From NCBI RefSeq assembly GCF_026988555.1, contig NZ_JALSLB010000057.1:1-39006 (forward strand): DNA of 39,006 nt, read 5' to 3'. This stretch comes from Thermococcus sp. GTDB taxonomy: Archaea > Methanobacteriota_B > Thermococci > Thermococcales > Thermococcaceae. Made by a program: the position numbers and the translations under genes. The stretch's first letter is position 1. Every line of letters begins with the position of its first letter. The notes below the pieces were generated by a model, which saw nothing but the letters and a program-made list of their open reading frames with translations, was not told where the DNA came from and ran no database searches. This document shows positions 12,828 through 18,361 of the stretch, piece by piece.

Positions 12828-12837
12828 GGTGATGGAG

Positions 12838-13755
12838 ATGGTGAAAGTTCTTGTTGCGGCACCTCTGCACGAGAAGGCGATAGAGGTTCTGAAGAACGCC
12901 GGTTTTGAGGTTCTTTACGAGGAGTACCCGGATGAGGGGAGGCTCATCGAGCTTGCTGAAGACGTTGACGCTATTGTCGTCAGGAGTAAGCCCAAGGTGA
13001 CTAGGAAGGTCATCGAGGCCGCCCCTAACCTTAAGGTCATCGGAAGGGCCGGCGTCGGTCTGGACAACATCGACCTTGAGGCCGCCAAGGAGAGGGAAAT
13101 AAGGGTCGTCAACAGTCCCGCCGCCTCAAGCAGGAGTGTTGCGGAGCTTGTTCTGGCGATGATGTTCAACGTCGCTAGGAAAGTGTCCTTCGCTGATCGG
13201 AAGATGAGGGAAGGTGTCTGGGCCAAGAAGCAGTGCATGGGGATCGAGCTTGATGGCAAGACCCTTGGAATAGTCGGCTTCGGTAGGATAGGCTATCAGA
13301 TAGCCAAGATAGCCAAAGCCCTTGGCATGAAAGTCCTGCTCTACGACCCCTACCCGAACGAAGAACGGGCCAAAGAGGTTGAAGGGAACTTTGTTGACCT
13401 CGAGACCCTCCTGGAGGAGAGCGATGTGGTTACTCTCCACGTCCCGTTAGTGGAGCAAACCTACCACCTCATCAACGAGGAGCGCCTTAAGCTCATGAAG
13501 AACACGGCGATACTAATCAACGCGGCGAGGGGAGCTGTTGTTGACACAAACGCTCTCGTTAAGGCCCTCCGGGAGGGCTGGATTGCCGGTGCCGGCCTGG
13601 ACGTCTACGAGGAGGAGCCGCTCCCGAAGGATCACCCGCTCACCAAGCTCGACAACGTGGTTCTAACTCCTCATATAGGCGCCTCAACCGTCGAGGCCCA
13701 GATGAGGGCCGGCGTTCAGGTGGCGGAGCAGATAGTCGAGGTTCTGAAGGGATGA
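12838..13755 (+). CDS. serA: D-3-phosphoglycerate dehydrogenase (short form)
   Basis: NAD-dependent D-2-hydroxyacid dehydrogenase; the best call is SerA, first step of serine synthesis. The 305-residue protein lacks the C-terminal ACT regulatory domain of bacterial SerA, as in other Thermococcales. Visible are VGFGRIG (NAD), the catalytic Arg in NAARGAVVDT, Glu in GLDVYEEEP and His in TPHIGAST, plus GRAGVGLDNID. The ATG at 12838 has GAGGTG six bases upstream; the GTG at 12829 and ATG at 12832 overlap that site. It lies 10 bp after the DUF47 stop, so the pair is co-transcribed. Other 2-hydroxyacid substrates are possible. Confidence 0.9.
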   Translation: MVKVLVAAPLHEKAIEVLKNAGFEVLYEEYPDEGRLIELAEDVDAIVVRSKPKVTRKVIEAAPNLKVIGRAGVGLDNIDLEAAKEREIRVVNSPAASSRSVAELVLAMMFNVARKVSFADRKMREGVWAKKQCMGIELDGKTLGIVGFGRIGYQIAKIAKALGMKVLLYDPYPNEERAKEVEGNFVDLETLLEESDVVTLHVPLVEQTYHLINEERLKLMKNTAILINAARGAVVDTNALVKALREGWIAGAGLDVYEEEPLPKDHPLTKLDNVVLTPHIGASTVEAQMRAGVQVAEQIVEVLKG

Positions 13756-13799
13756 TGCCCTCCTCTTCTTTATCCCGTTTCAACTTCTCTCAAATCTCG

Positions 13800-13890
13800 C
13801 CAGCATACCGGCAAAGTTCGCTGGAAAAGTTTACCAGTATAGTGGTACGATTTTGATGAGAAGTTTGCCAGTATAGTGGTAAACTTTATA
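13800..13890 (+). promoter_or_regulatory. Three operator-like repeats at 34-bp period, over the ATPase promoter
   Basis: CCAGTATAGTGGTA occurs at 13834 and again at 13868, and a degenerate copy (CCAGCATACCGGCA) begins at 13800, so the three starts are exactly 34 bp apart. The last copy is a 26-bp imperfect palindrome (13861-13886; outer arms AAGTTT and AAACTT, inner CCA and TGG). Its right arm runs into the TATA element ACTTTATA (13883-13890), which lies 27 bases before ATG 13914. A protein bound there would block or shape transcription of the ATPase gene; autoregulation is an inference. Confidence 0.7.
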
Positions 13891-13913
13891 GGGAGTTTGA
13901 ACCAGTTCCCCCC

Positions 13914-15223
13914 ATGAACGTTGAAGAACTCAAGAGAGTATTAGCTGATCAGTGGGTACCCTGAGCAGAAAGCTTGAGCGGGAGAACATCGTCGGGAGAG
14001 AGCTGAAGGGGAGGATCGTTGCTAACTTCAACCCAACGGCTCACATAATAACCGGGCCGAGGCGCTCCGGAAAATCCGTTCTCTCGGCAACCCTTCCCGG
14101 CAGACCACTCTATGTAAACTTTGAGGATCCTGCGATGGCGGGTTTCGCGATTGGAGACTATAGGAGGCTTATGCAGGCAGGTTACGAGCTTTTTGGTCAG
14201 TTTGATTACGTGGTTCTTGACGAGGTTCAAGAAGTCGAGGGCTGGGAAAGGATGGTTTCGGTTCTTAGGGACGACTATCCAACAGTCGTTACCGGGAGCA
14301 ATGCCCGGCTTCTTTCACGGGAGTTCGCAACGTATCTGACTGGAAGATACCTGAGCTATACACTCCTGCCGTTCTCGTTCAGGGAGTTTTTAACGTACAG
14401 GGAAATTGAGCCGGATGTTAAGACAACGAGAGACGAGGCTCTGATAAAGAGGGCTTTGATTGAGTACATCGGGCGCGGTGGCTTCCCGGAGGCTCTGCAC
14501 TTCGGCAGGGAGTACCTCATAAATCTCTACAACGATATCATCACGAGGGACGTGGTAGTCCGCTATGGCGTTAGAAACGTCCGCGAGCTGAAGGAAGTCG
14601 CCTTCTACCTCTTCTCGAACTTCGCCGGACGATTTACATACAGCAAGACAAAGAACGCCCTCGGAATCGGCAACATCGAGACGGTGAAGAACTACGTTGG
14701 GTACCTTGAATCCGCCTACCTGATTTTTGAGCTTCCCAAGTTCTCCTTCAAGCCCAAAGAGGTCGTGAGGAGCGATAAGAAGGTCTACGCAGTTGACACG
14801 GGAATGCTCAATGCGGTCCTTCCAAAGGTTTCGGAAAACATCGGTAGGCTCATGGAGAACGCCGTTTTCATCGAACTCCTGCGGTTCAAATATTACAGGA
14901 GACCCGGCCTTGAACTCTACCATTACAGAGACAGCAAGGGCGAGGTGGACTTTGTTGTTAGGGATAAAGGGGAGACCGAACTCATACAGGTTACGTATGC
15001 CTCGGGTGAGGACGAGGTAGCTTCAAGGGAAGTGGAGAACCTTTTCAGGGTTATGAAACTGTTCCGCGTGAAAACTGGGACGCTCGTGACGTGGGACTAC
15101 TCCGGTGAGATAAGGCGAGACAACCTAACCGTTAAGGCTGTTCCGCTCTGGAGGTGGTTTTTAAATTTTCGCGTCAACCTTTTTAATCCCAAACGCAACT
15201 TTCAACAGGTGAATGCCAATTGA
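13914..15223 (+). pseudogene. AAA (AAA_14/DUF4143) ATPase, frameshifted near the start
   Basis: An archaeal AAA-type ATPase with Walker A ITGPRRSGKS, Walker B YVVLDEVQE, sensor VVTGSNARLLSRE, and a C-terminal DUF4143 region (VYAVDTGMLNA; EVDFVVRDKG, nuclease-like in form). The natural start is ATG 13914, 27 bases after a TATA box, giving MNVEELKRVLADQWVP and then TGA at 13962. The rest lies in another frame open from 13949. One extra C in the CCC run at 13959-13961 would join them as ADQWVPLSRKLEREN. The only in-frame start for the main body is a GTG at 13952 with no ribosome-binding site. The last 19 residues run over the fumA promoter, so the C-terminus may also be altered. It could be a real pseudogene, a slippage site or a sequence error. 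Confidence 0.75.
15178..15190 (+). promoter_or_regulatory. Promoter of the fumarase alpha gene
   Basis: ACCTTTTTAATCCC lies about 36 bases ahead of the TTG start of fumA, inside the ATPase reading frame. The expected transcript start near 15210 leaves room for the AGGTGAATG ribosome-binding site. Confidence 0.45.
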
Positions 15224-16071
15224 TTGATGCCGTCGTCGAGGCGATAAGGCTGGCCGTCACGAGGATTCCCGATGATGTCGTTTTGGCCCTCAGGGAGGCT
15301 TACGAGCGAGAGGAGAGCAAAATAGCGCGCTTCAACCTCAGAAACATTCTCAAGGCCATAGAGATTGGTAAAATCGAGTCCATTCCCGTCTGTCAGGACA
15401 CGGGCACGGTGACCTTCTTCGTCGAGGCCGGCGTTGAGAGTCCCTACCTCGGTGGACTCAGAGGCCTGCTCACCGAGGCTACGAGGAGGGCAACTCATGA
15501 GATTCCCCTCCGGCCAAACGCCGTCGACGTCCTTACCGGAGGGAACTCCGGCGACAACACGGGCAGGGACGTTCCCCTAATCCACTGGGAGCTTGTTCCG
15601 GGGGATGCGATAAGGATAGCCGTTCTTCCAAAGGGAGGGGGAAGCGAGAACTGCTCTGCTCTGGCTATGCTGATCCCTGGGGAGGGTTGGGAGGGGCTAA
15701 AGCGCTTCGTAGTCGAGCACGTTAAAGCCTGCGGCGGAAAGCCCTGTCCTCCGGTTATCCTCGGGATAGGTGTCGGTGGGGGCGCAGACCACGCCCTGCT
15801 CCTGGCCAAAAAGGCCCTGCTGAGAAAAGTGGGGGAGAGGAATCCCGACGGGAGAATAGCGAAGATCGAGGCCGAGCTCCTGGAGGAGGTCAACTCCCTG
15901 GGAGTAGGCCCGATGGGCATGGGCGGAAAAACAACCGCTTTGGACGTCAAGATAGAGGTCGCCCACAGGCACCCCGCGAGCTTCCCGGTAGGTCTGGTCG
16001 TCCAGTGCTGGGCCAACAGGAGGGCGTTCGTCGAGATAGAGCCCGACGGGAGTGCTGTGGTCAGGGGTTAG
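15220..16071 (+). CDS. fumA: Fumarate hydratase class I, alpha subunit
   Basis: Catalytic [4Fe-4S] subunit of the two-subunit class I fumarase, which hydrates fumarate to L-malate. The 283-residue length is standard. Cluster-related cysteines are Cys58 in CQDTG, Cys145 in SENCSAL and Cys176 in KPCPPV; GIGVGGGADHALLLAKKALL and GPMGMGGKTTALDV are family blocks. The start is TTG at 15220 with GGTGAATG upstream; no ATG or GTG fits. It overlaps the ATPase stop by four bases and ends convergent with the STAND gene, overlapping by 11 bp. The beta subunit is 4.9 kb away at 20945 instead of adjacent. Confidence 0.93.
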   Translation: MIDAVVEAIRLAVTRIPDDVVLALREAYEREESKIARFNLRNILKAIEIGKIESIPVCQDTGTVTFFVEAGVESPYLGGLRGLLTEATRRATHEIPLRPNAVDVLTGGNSGDNTGRDVPLIHWELVPGDAIRIAVLPKGGGSENCSALAMLIPGEGWEGLKRFVVEHVKACGGKPCPPVILGIGVGGGADHALLLAKKALLRKVGERNPDGRIAKIEAELLEEVNSLGVGPMGMGGKTTALDVKIEVAHRHPASFPVGLVVQCWANRRAFVEIEPDGSAVVRG

Positions 16072-18361
16072 AATCTCTGGAAAGCCAGGAATTGACGTCT
16101 CTTTCGTCGAAGAGCACTGTGAGCTCTTCAAAGAGTCCCCTGTAGAGGTAGTCGTTGTCCCGGAGCTTTTCCAGGCCCGTTTCCAGGTATTCTTCCCCAT
16201 CTTCCCCCCTGAGTTCTCTCAGGATTCCGATGAGTAAGTATGCCGTCCATCCCAGGGGGTAGTTCGTGCTCTGTGTTATCTCCGCCATTTTCTTAGCCTG
16301 GTTCTCGGCTTTTCCGTACTCTCTCAGCCCCATGAGGGACACCGTCAGCCTGAAGAGCGCGTCCAGAGCTCTGCGATAGTTTCTAACCCACAGGAAGTAC
16401 TCAGCCGCCTTCCCTGCGTTGCCAGCGGCCTCGTTGAAGTTTCGGAGGTAATACTGGACTATACCCATCTGAAGGTACCCGAGGTTCATCATGAATGGGA
16501 GGCTGTAGGCCTTAGCCGTCTCAAGGCCCTCCCTGTAGTATGTCAGCGCCCGCTGGAGCTCGCCGAGCTCGACGTAGAGGTAGCCTATGTGGTAGAGGAT
16601 CAGCGCCTCGAGTTCGGGATACGGCTCCGGGTAGCTCCTCACTGCCTCAAGCTCTTTGAAGGCGCTTTCTAGGGCCTTCTCGCGCTCCCTCTTGAACGTC
16701 CGCACCTTCGTGAGCTCGATGTAGTACCCCAGCTTGATGTACGGGTCGTCTCTGTGGCTTCTGAAAATTTCCTCGAGCTCACTGAGAGTCTCTTCCGCCA
16801 GTTCGATGTTTCCCATCTCACAGTGGACGTCGACGAGCATCATTAGGATGTCAAACCTGTGAAAGTCCCCTTCGATGCCCTCCAGGGCTTTATGCCAGAG
16901 ACCCAGCGCCCTCTCGAAGAATCCTCTGTTGAAGTAGAGCCTCGCCATCTCCTTCTTTGCGTAGGGACTATCCTCCACCTTTCTGAGGAGTCTCATGTAT
17001 GCCGTCGGAAAGTCCAGTGCAACCCTCCAGAGCCTTCTTATCCTCAGTTCGGTGATATCAGCTATCATCTCCTCGTCTCCCAGCCTGGTGACATACTTGA
17101 AGGCCGTTAAGAAATCCCTGGCGGTGTTTTTCTCCAGGAGATACGAGATGTACTCCCTGTAATGGCTCTTCTCATCAACCTCACTGATCTCCCTTATGAA
17201 CGCCCTGAGGAGGTCATGGAGGTAATAGTTCTCGCCCTTTCTCTCCACGAGTCCCTTGTTCAGGAGGGAGTACAGGACCAGGAATGCACTTCCGTACGTC
17301 ATCCTCTTGAGGGCCGGTAACTCCACGGGCTCATCGAACAGTGCCAGAACCTGGAGCACAAGCCTCTCCCTCTCGTCCAGCTTCTCGTATATCTCCCCCA
17401 GCAGGTATTCGAAGAGGGAAGCCCTGTCCCCAGCTACTTCCCGGGCCTCCGCGGCGAGGGCGAGGAGCAGGGGATGACCCAGGGTTAAGTGGTGTAACCT
17501 TACTGCCTCCTCGGGTGTTATGCCCGGTATCCTGAGACTCAAAAGCCTGTGAGACTCCTCGACTTTCAACCCCTCGAGGTGTATGAAAAGAACCCTCTCG
17601 TAATCCACCCGTGGTTTTTCCCTTGATATGAGGATGAGCTTTCCCCTCTCGACTCTGGAGGATAGGAACCGCAGGAACGACTCGATTTCACCATCGGTGC
17701 ACTTGTGGACGTCCTCGAAGACGACGACTGAGCGTGTTTTCTCAATCCCCTCGAGAATCAGCCCCTTCATGGATTTGGGATCCCGTCCTCCGGCGCGCAG
17801 GTATTCGATCAGTTCAGGGAACCCCTTCATGTTCAGGTGGAGTGCCATCCGCCAGGCGATGTACTCAAGGCTCTCGCTCCCATCCATTGGATACCAGAAG
17901 GCGTCATCGAAGGCCCTTGCCACGAGGCTGGATTTCCCTATCCCGGCTATCCCGAACACGGCTACGACCGGGGAGCTCCCTTTGAGGAGTTTCAGTTCCT
18001 CATCCCTCCCGACGAAGTTATCCACCTCCGGAGCGCTGGATGCCGAGAGCGGCTGGGGGCGGTGGTAAACGGTCTCCCCCATAACCACCTTGACTCCCCC
18101 CGCTGTAAAACGGACGCTGAACTCATCGCACTTGAGGGAGTATAACTTGACGTTTCTGCCCCTCAGCCGAACCCACCTTCCCTCAACGATGCCCATCCTC
18201 TCAAGGCCCCTTAATCCTCTTGAGATCTGCGTTTCGTCCTTCTGGAGAAGCCGGGCTATCTCCCTTGTGTTCAGGGAGTCTGTCCTGAGGAGTGAGATTA
18301 TCTGGAGGTTCGTCTCGCTGAGAATCGATTTCAGCACGGACACGTCGTTCGAAAAGTTCAC
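16061..18361 (-). CDS. HTH-STAND NTPase-TPR regulator (MalT-like architecture)
   Basis: A 766-residue signal-transduction ATPase. Order: N-terminal winged helix (about 10-80, NTREIARLLQKDETQISRGL), then a STAND-type NTPase with NFVGRDEEL (115-123), Walker A GIAGIGKS (137-144), Walker B VVVFED (212-217) and an LILISRE strand, a winged-helix-like part with LHDLLRAFI, and a C-terminal half of TPR-like repeats from about residue 440. Such proteins bind a ligand through the repeats, oligomerise with ATP and act on DNA; target unknown here. GTG 18361 is preceded by GAGAGGG. Two AT-rich stretches upstream (near 18405 and 18430) could be its own promoter, 91 bp after the 47-residue gene. Confidence 0.82.
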   Translation of the reverse strand: MNFSNDVSVLKSILSETNLQIISLLRTDSLNTREIARLLQKDETQISRGLRGLERMGIVEGRWVRLRGRNVKLYSLKCDEFSVRFTAGGVKVVMGETVYHRPQPLSASSAPEVDNFVGRDEELKLLKGSSPVVAVFGIAGIGKSSLVARAFDDAFWYPMDGSESLEYIAWRMALHLNMKGFPELIEYLRAGGRDPKSMKGLILEGIEKTRSVVVFEDVHKCTDGEIESFLRFLSSRVERGKLILISREKPRVDYERVLFIHLEGLKVEESHRLLSLRIPGITPEEAVRLHHLTLGHPLLLALAAEAREVAGDRASLFEYLLGEIYEKLDERERLVLQVLALFDEPVELPALKRMTYGSAFLVLYSLLNKGLVERKGENYYLHDLLRAFIREISEVDEKSHYREYISYLLEKNTARDFLTAFKYVTRLGDEEMIADITELRIRRLWRVALDFPTAYMRLLRKVEDSPYAKKEMARLYFNRGFFERALGLWHKALEGIEGDFHRFDILMMLVDVHCEMGNIELAEETLSELEEIFRSHRDDPYIKLGYYIELTKVRTFKREREKALESAFKELEAVRSYPEPYPELEALILYHIGYLYVELGELQRALTYYREGLETAKAYSLPFMMNLGYLQMGIVQYYLRNFNEAAGNAGKAAEYFLWVRNYRRALDALFRLTVSLMGLREYGKAENQAKKMAEITQSTNYPLGWTAYLLIGILRELRGEDGEEYLETGLEKLRDNDYLYRGLFEELTVLFDERDVNSWLSRDSNP

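What the first reader, a model, noticed from the sequence alone, without database searches (positions are those of the whole stretch)
13800..13890. Triple operator with exact 34-bp period over a TATA box
Two near-identical copies of CCAGTATAGTGGTA and one degenerate copy start at 13800, 13834 and 13868. The last is palindromic and runs into the TATA box. A period of 34 bp is about 3.2 turns, suggesting multimeric binding. Nothing else in the window has this motif as far as I can see. It may be an autoregulatory operator of mobile-type DUF4143 ATPases.
Basis: partly seen in the sequence, partly recalled or inferred. Interest (0 to 1): 0.7.

Follow-up and report, generated by a model that had tools for sequence, protein, structure and literature searches.

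The report
Self-operator array of a defence-type ATPase
The three evenly spaced palindromes found here sit in the promoter of a candidate anti-virus ATPase gene, and relatives of that gene across archaea and some bacteria carry their own, differently spelled palindromes at almost the same 32-35 base spacing, which suggests that this large unstudied protein family binds and regulates its own genes.

Summary
Observation confirmed: near-palindromes at 13828 and 13862 (34 bp apart), a degenerate one at 13794, the last abutting the TATA box. The motif recurs in 32 congeneric genomes, always at one syntenic locus between serA and fumarase: in 21 before an orthologous AAA_14/DUF4143 ATPase, in 11 as an orphan where that gene is lost or relic.
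Decisive test: promoters of 88 other DUF4143 ATPases of the same family of genomes carry different palindromes at the same spacing. All 56 significant repeats lie at 33, 34 or 35 bp. Outside that family, in archaea and bacteria, 29 of 37 lie at 32-34 bp, with a few at 23 and 41-43. Promoters of other genes, including another ATPase family, rarely show it.
The protein is predicted as AAA+ ATPase, winged helix and PD-(D/E)XK-like fold and is PADLOC's PDC-S01, a very common, untested phage-defence candidate (PMC12988326).
Best reading: each ATPase binds its own phased operators and autoregulates. Binding is inferred, not shown. Orphan operators, more degenerate than occupied ones (p=0.009), are the main loose end.

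The parts
13794..13817 (.). operator copy 1, degenerate (ATCTCGCCAGCATACCGGCAAAGT)
   Evidence: 8 mismatches to the consensus but exactly in the 34-bp register; copy 1 is often better preserved in orthologues
13828..13851 (.). operator copy 2 (AGTTTACCAGTATAGTGGTACGAT)
   Evidence: 3 mismatches to AGTTTACCANTATANTGGTAAACT
13862..13885 (.). operator copy 3, best palindrome (AGTTTGCCAGTATAGTGGTAAACT), abutting the TATA box
   Evidence: 1 mismatch; most conserved register in most orthologues
13884..13891 (+). TATA box (CTTTATAG) of the ATPase gene, touching copy 3
   Evidence: sequence inspection; conserved in ATPase-bearing orthologous loci
13914..15223 (+). AAA_14/DUF4143 ATPase (PADLOC PDC-S01): starts at ATG 13914, reading frame broken near 13956 (one base fewer than in orthologues); the rest is open as 13952-15223
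   Evidence: Pfam AAA_14 7.9e-28 and DUF4143 1.1e-27; PADLOC PDC-S01 2e-105; intact orthologues
15220..16071 (+). fumarase alpha-type subunit (PF05681), start overlapping the ATPase stop codon; the operator lies directly before it in most genomes that lost the ATPase
12829..13755 (+). 2-hydroxyacid dehydrogenase (serA-like), conserved upstream neighbour that anchors synteny

Best explanation
The array is the operator of the AAA_14/DUF4143 (PDC-S01) ATPase gene that follows it, and the ATPase itself most likely binds it. Steps shown by computation: palindromic sites repeated at a fixed 33-35 bp in front of DUF4143 ATPase genes; a different palindrome for each paralogous group but the same spacing; for the two groups tested (the window type and one other), sites restricted almost entirely to the cognate locus or its empty counterpart; a predicted winged-helix module in the protein. 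Steps inferred: a dimer or larger assembly of the ATPase places winged helices on each palindrome; neighbours three helical turns apart touch each other, which fixes the spacing; the site next to or flanking the TATA box blocks TBP/TFB or polymerase, so the protein represses its own synthesis and, in this locus, probably that of the downstream fumarase gene. Nucleotide state or an infection-linked signal would release it. Repression rather than activation is a guess from site positions.
For: Conservation: 32 congeneric genomes carry the motif at one syntenic locus, copies at multiples of 34 bp in nearly all, 0 reversed-pattern hits. Spacing rule: 88 paralogue promoters, 56 significant, all at lags 33 (24), 34 (20) or 35 (12), in about ten unrelated motif classes. 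Outside this family of genomes: 29 of 37 significant at 32-34, further ones at 23 and 41-43, i.e. roughly one helical turn shorter or longer; other families of the same class share TACTCATTGCCAATGAGTA at period 33, and L204 has four copies at period 32. Independent measure: pairs of palindrome centres peak at 33-35 (z 12-20) and at 33 outside (z 11). Controls: PF01637 ATPases of related genomes 1 of 27, window promoters 2 of 29, other genes in the same loci 18 of 179 with mixed lags against 61 of 123 for DUF4143-like genes. Site specificity for another group: TGGTACNNTATNNNGTACCA is found before that group's ATPase or at empty versions of the site. Operator similarity tracks protein similarity (Mantel-type test, rho 0.39 with the AAA part, 0.34 with the winged helix). 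Structure: pLDDT 89, pTM 0.90, AAA 30-165, winged helix about 223-276, PD-(D/E)XK-like fold 289-411; best PDB match is the AAA+-winged-helix Cdc6/Orc1 bound to origin DNA. Operators without an ATPase are more degenerate (p=0.009).
Against: No binding data. Eleven genomes keep recognisable sites without this ATPase and without an orthologue elsewhere, and the same is seen for a second group, so a different binder or very recent loss must be invoked. Partial tests do not single out the winged helix as the specificity module (wHTH given AAA 0.105, p 0.035; AAA given wHTH 0.23, p 0.002). In the window the gene is frameshifted. In ten cultured plasmid-borne relatives the signal is weaker and lags vary (23, 32, 33, 40). 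About a third to a half of the genes tested show no significant repeat at this threshold.
Confidence: 0.7

Rival explanations
1. The array is an operator for a host transcription factor that controls the fumarase gene (or serA-fumarase region); the ATPase gene merely landed between operator and fumarase.
For: In eight ATPase-less genomes the operators lie directly upstream of fumarase; orphan sites persist with 1-3 mismatches in the best copy.
Against: Loci with neither ATPase nor long intergenic region have no operator although serA-fumarase is intact; the motif occurs at no other host gene; it is kept with the ATPase where fumarase was not found (L024, L025, L027); the same design with other sequences precedes DUF4143 genes with no fumarase near.
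Confidence: 0.12
2. The neighbouring STAND-type regulator (HTH-ATPase-TPR, window 16061-18361) binds the array.
For: It is adjacent to and convergent with fumarase here and in several other genomes, and regulators of that type bind multiple sites (own knowledge).
Against: It is absent from many genomes that have the operator (e.g. G018, G022) and present next to fumarase in a genus without the operator.
Confidence: 0.03
3. The repeats belong to the movement or upkeep of the ATPase gene (attachment or iteron-like sites, or a landing site left after loss) rather than to transcription.
For: Clean empty sites with operators retained in two groups; up to 13 paralogues per genome; relatives on plasmids.
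Against: In the loci read, repeats lie at the promoter, abutting or flanking the TATA box or start codon; spacing keeps helical phase; no transposase-like domain in the protein.
Confidence: 0.08
4. Chance or shared ancestry of local sequence, without function.
For: Orthologues are not independent; some promoters show no signal.
Against: About ten unrelated motifs in one family of genomes plus archaea and bacteria outside it share the spacing, controls do not; reversed-pattern controls are zero.
Confidence: 0.02

Closest known systems
Ss-LrpB of Sulfolobus solfataricus on its own promoter
   Same: [quoted passage not shown] autoregulation (PMC4046817). Archaeal Lrp sites are two or three helical turns centre to centre (PMC2995911).
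   Different: Lrp proteins are small HTH-RAM regulators with several targets; here the gene is a 420-450 aa ATPase with a nuclease-like domain, and the sites of the two groups tested occur only at the cognate locus or its empty counterpart.
PDC-S01 phage-defence candidate (PADLOC)
   Same: The protein matches PDLC04787 at E 3e-107; ATPase fused to a PD-(D/E)XK-type domain, very common in archaea and bacteria (PMC12988326).
   Different: No regulation is mentioned for PDC-S01 in that paper; antiviral activity is untested; the operator arrays are new to it as far as the held library shows.
Cdc6/Orc1 initiators on origin repeats
   Same: Best solved-structure match (2qby, E 9e-6): AAA+ module plus winged helix on DNA repeats.
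   Different: Weak global match (TM 0.28-0.33); initiators act at replication origins, here the repeats sit at promoters.
MalT-like STAND regulators
   Same: ATPase that binds arrays of sites at promoters (own knowledge); 8bob is among the structural matches.
   Different: No TPR sensor here; nuclease-like C-terminal domain instead; the target is the protein's own gene.

Membership tests
AAA_14/DUF4143 ATPases (Pfam PF13173 + PF13635) | both Pfam domains above cut-off | tested here: met
   97.5 and 97.2 bits against cut-offs 27 and 28.1
PDC-S01 (PADLOC) | match to a PDC-S01 profile over most of its length | tested here: met
   PDLC04787, profile 26-408 of 412, E 3e-107
PDC-S01 (PADLOC) | protects against phage or virus | not testable with these tools
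   experimental validation is described as pending for most such candidates (PMC12988326)
Autoregulatory operator of the downstream gene | sites overlap or abut the gene's promoter and are conserved with it | tested here: met
   all intact orthologues; paralogues with their own versions
Autoregulatory operator of the downstream gene | sites are lost or decay when the gene is lost | tested here: inconclusive
   more degenerate in ATPase-less genomes (p 0.009) but still recognisable in eleven
Autoregulatory operator of the downstream gene | the gene product binds the sites and changes transcription | not testable with these tools
   needs gel shift, footprint and reporter assays
Lrp-type cooperative operator | regulator is an Lrp/AsnC protein | tested here: not met
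   no Lrp gene next to the array; the downstream product is an AAA_14/DUF4143 ATPase

The most novel reading that the evidence does not exclude
One of the most abundant candidate defence families in prokaryotes (PDC-S01/DUF4143 ATPases) is a new class of self-specific operator-binding ATPases: each paralogue recognises its own palindrome, while the protein assembly fixes the three-turn spacing, so that up to 13 paralogues per genome run insulated self-repression circuits that could be released by nucleotide state or viral infection.
Probability: 0.4. Interest if true: 0.85.

Novelty: new variant of a known kind. Interest (0 to 1): 0.72.

Why it matters
DUF4143/PDC-S01 ATPases number in the tens of thousands (about 10,000 archaeal and 29,000 bacterial systems counted in PMC12988326), and I found nothing in the held library on what they bind or how they are controlled. 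A family-wide, phased and paralogue-specific operator gives each protein an immediate DNA substrate, so its DNA binding, ATP dependence and induction can be tested at once. It would also be an unusual case of regulatory specificity diversifying within a paralogous family while geometry stays fixed.

Tried and rejected
1) Fourth half-site downstream of the TATA box: 2 bp out of register, dropped. 2) The adjacent HTH-ATPase-TPR regulator as binder: no co-occurrence. 3) Operator as primarily a fumarase operator: suggested by the ATPase-less genomes, set aside after the paralogue promoters were read. 4) Two pattern hits in another genus (G006, G011): isolated single sites away from any ATPase, treated as chance. 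5) Assigning specificity to the winged-helix recognition helix by partial correlation: inconclusive. 6) Solved relatives by sequence: none. 7) Viral structure library: mostly generic AAA+ matches. 8) First version of the promoter control wrongly included DUF4143 genes; redone with profile-based exclusion. 10) Literature: 'DUF4143' in one paper that, from its title and abstract, concerns Argonaute (not read further); other searches unproductive.

Full report
Observation. The repeats are real and at the stated places. CCAGTATAGTGGTA is exact at 13834 and 13868 and 10/14 at 13800. The unit is a 24-bp near-palindrome, AGTTTACCANTATANTGGTAAACT, in registers 13794, 13828 and 13862, exactly 34 bp apart. 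In the intergenic stretch 13756-13914 the lag-34 repeat scores 20, against at most 15 in 3000 dinucleotide shuffles over all lags 20-60. The last copy abuts the TATA box. No other match with up to 3 mismatches exists in the 1.97-Mb genome.

What is downstream. The next gene is an AAA_14/DUF4143 ATPase, starting at ATG 13914. In this assembly its frame breaks near 13956 (one base fewer than in orthologues), so the copy in the window is either a young pseudogene or carries a sequencing error; intact copies exist in many relatives. Fumarase follows, overlapping the ATPase stop codon.

Orthologous loci. Searching 94 genomes of the same family, 34 match the palindrome with up to 3 mismatches and the reversed-pattern control gives 0. 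Two are isolated hits in another genus, away from any ATPase. The other 32 are all at the serA-fumarase locus, nearly always with copies 34 or 68 bp apart. In 21 the ATPase orthologue follows (in three it is broken or at a contig end); in 11 it is gone or a relic, and in eight of these the array was seen directly before fumarase in the first set of loci. Every full-length orthologue found by protein search has the array, including one (G066, L044) whose copies are too divergent for the pattern search. Where serA and fumarase are separated by a short spacer without ATPase, no operator is seen.

The decisive comparison. If the array belongs to the ATPase, other members should have something similar. 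Promoters of 88 other DUF4143 ATPase genes (about 33-60% identical to the window protein) were fetched from the same family of genomes. They carry repeats of different palindromes: TTTGTGGTTGCTAATCACAAA, TTGGTACGGTATAGTGTACCAA, TGGTAAAGTTGAGTTTACCA, TTGTGTATTAGTAATACACAA, TTGCTGGATATAATTGGCAA and others. Scoring ungapped self-similarity at every lag from 20 to 60 against shuffles, 56 of 88 are significant, and all 56 have lag 33, 34 or 35. They are not independent (about ten motif classes), but each class found the same spacing. Sites typically sit just upstream of the TATA box, with another copy over the transcription or translation start.

Beyond the family. Genes of other families in the same class show the same design (L191, L192, L194, period 33), and a more distant DUF4143 gene, L204, carries four copies at period 32. 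A collection scan brought 79 further DUF4143 loci from Methanoperedens, Thermoplasmata, DPANN archaea, Bacteroidota, Omnitrophota, Patescibacteria and others, with a few more from Thermococcus itself. Of 77 promoters tested, 37 are significant and 29 of these have lag 32-34; five lie at 21-23 and three at 41-43, close to one helical turn less or more. Counting palindrome centres instead of repeats gives the same peak, as does a combined score. In many of these the core is ATT-N3-AAT. In ten plasmid-borne relatives from cultured organisms the signal is weaker and more varied: 23, 32, 33 and 40.

Controls. Arch-type ATPase genes (PF01637) from related genomes: 1 of 27 significant. Promoters in the window: 2 of 29, neither being an operator-like array. 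Other genes in the same fetched loci: 18 of 179 at mixed lags, of which five are one orthologous dehydrogenase and one is an orphan operator, against 61 of 123 for DUF4143-like genes.

Who binds. No single regulator can easily account for unrelated palindromes that share only spacing and the identity of the downstream gene; the economical binder is the ATPase. Operator similarity tracks protein similarity, though the test cannot say which domain reads the DNA. The predicted structure (pLDDT 89, pTM 0.90) has an N-terminal helix, an AAA domain (30-165), a helical linker, a winged-helix-like unit (about 223-276) and a PD-(D/E)XK-like fold (289-411) with conserved ExD and Q residues; the domain names are my reading of the secondary structure, the conserved residues and the matches. 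Its best solved match is Cdc6/Orc1 on origin DNA, with RuvB, Can2 nucleases and STAND proteins further down, all weak globally. For a second paralogous group the palindrome was searched in 94 genomes: most hits are pairs 35 bp apart in front of that group's ATPase, or single sites of which six were fetched and lie at empty versions of the site.

Loose end. Sites persist in genomes without the cognate ATPase, in both groups examined. In the window's group they are significantly more degenerate than occupied ones (sum of mismatches in the best two copies 7.6 against 5.5, p 0.009), as expected for decay after loss; most of these loci were found by a mismatch-limited search, which works against finding that difference. 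Whether a second factor, or fumarase regulation, slows the decay is open.

What it is called. PADLOC names the protein PDC-S01. According to PMC12988326 this is the fourth most common defence system across prokaryotes, ATPase plus PD-(D/E)XK, with validation pending for most such candidates; that paper does not mention promoters or operators. In two of the plasmids the gene lies between restriction-modification genes (L328) or between cas3 and cas4 (L337), which fits a defence role. The functional parallel is Ss-LrpB, which binds three regularly spaced palindromes in its own promoter (PMC4046817), and archaeal Lrp sites are two or three turns apart (PMC2995911); it works like that but is not a member.

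Verdict. The mechanism (ATPase binds own operators, probably repressing) is inferred at about 0.7.

Noticed in passing
window 13950-13964: The ATPase reading frame is broken by one missing base relative to orthologues; other genomes have stops, splits or relics of the same gene, so this orthologue is often being lost.
   Followed up: partly
window 15160-15223: The last codons of the ATPase (FRVNLFNPKRNFQQVNAN) are encoded by sequence that in ATPase-less genomes lies in the promoter and leader region of fumarase (CGTCAATCTTTTTAAC...CAGGTGA), so the ATPase gene sits between the operator and fumarase's own promoter.
   Followed up: partly
window 16061-18361: A large STAND-type regulator (ArsR/TrmB-like HTH, AAA_16/NB-ARC, TPR) lies convergent with fumarase and is next to fumarase in several other genomes and another genus; function unknown.
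   Followed up: partly
L320-L325: Orphan operators of a second ATPase group (TGGTAC...GTACCA) with a TATA-like stretch and no ATPase gene, in six genomes, four of them with a closely similar empty site.
   Followed up: partly
L204: Four copies of TGAAAG-N4-CTTTCA at period 32 before a more distant DUF4143 gene, the longest array seen.
   Followed up: no
L191, L245, L259, L275, L276: Many archaeal and bacterial operators share a core ATT-N3-AAT, perhaps the ancestral site of the family.
   Followed up: no
L242, L245, L274, L276, L285: Several loci, most titled as DPANN archaea, have the sites 23 bp apart, about one helical turn less than the usual 33.
   Followed up: no
L328 and L337: In a Treponema plasmid the ATPase gene lies between hsdR and a methyltransferase gene; in an Arcobacter plasmid between cas3 and cas4.
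   Followed up: no
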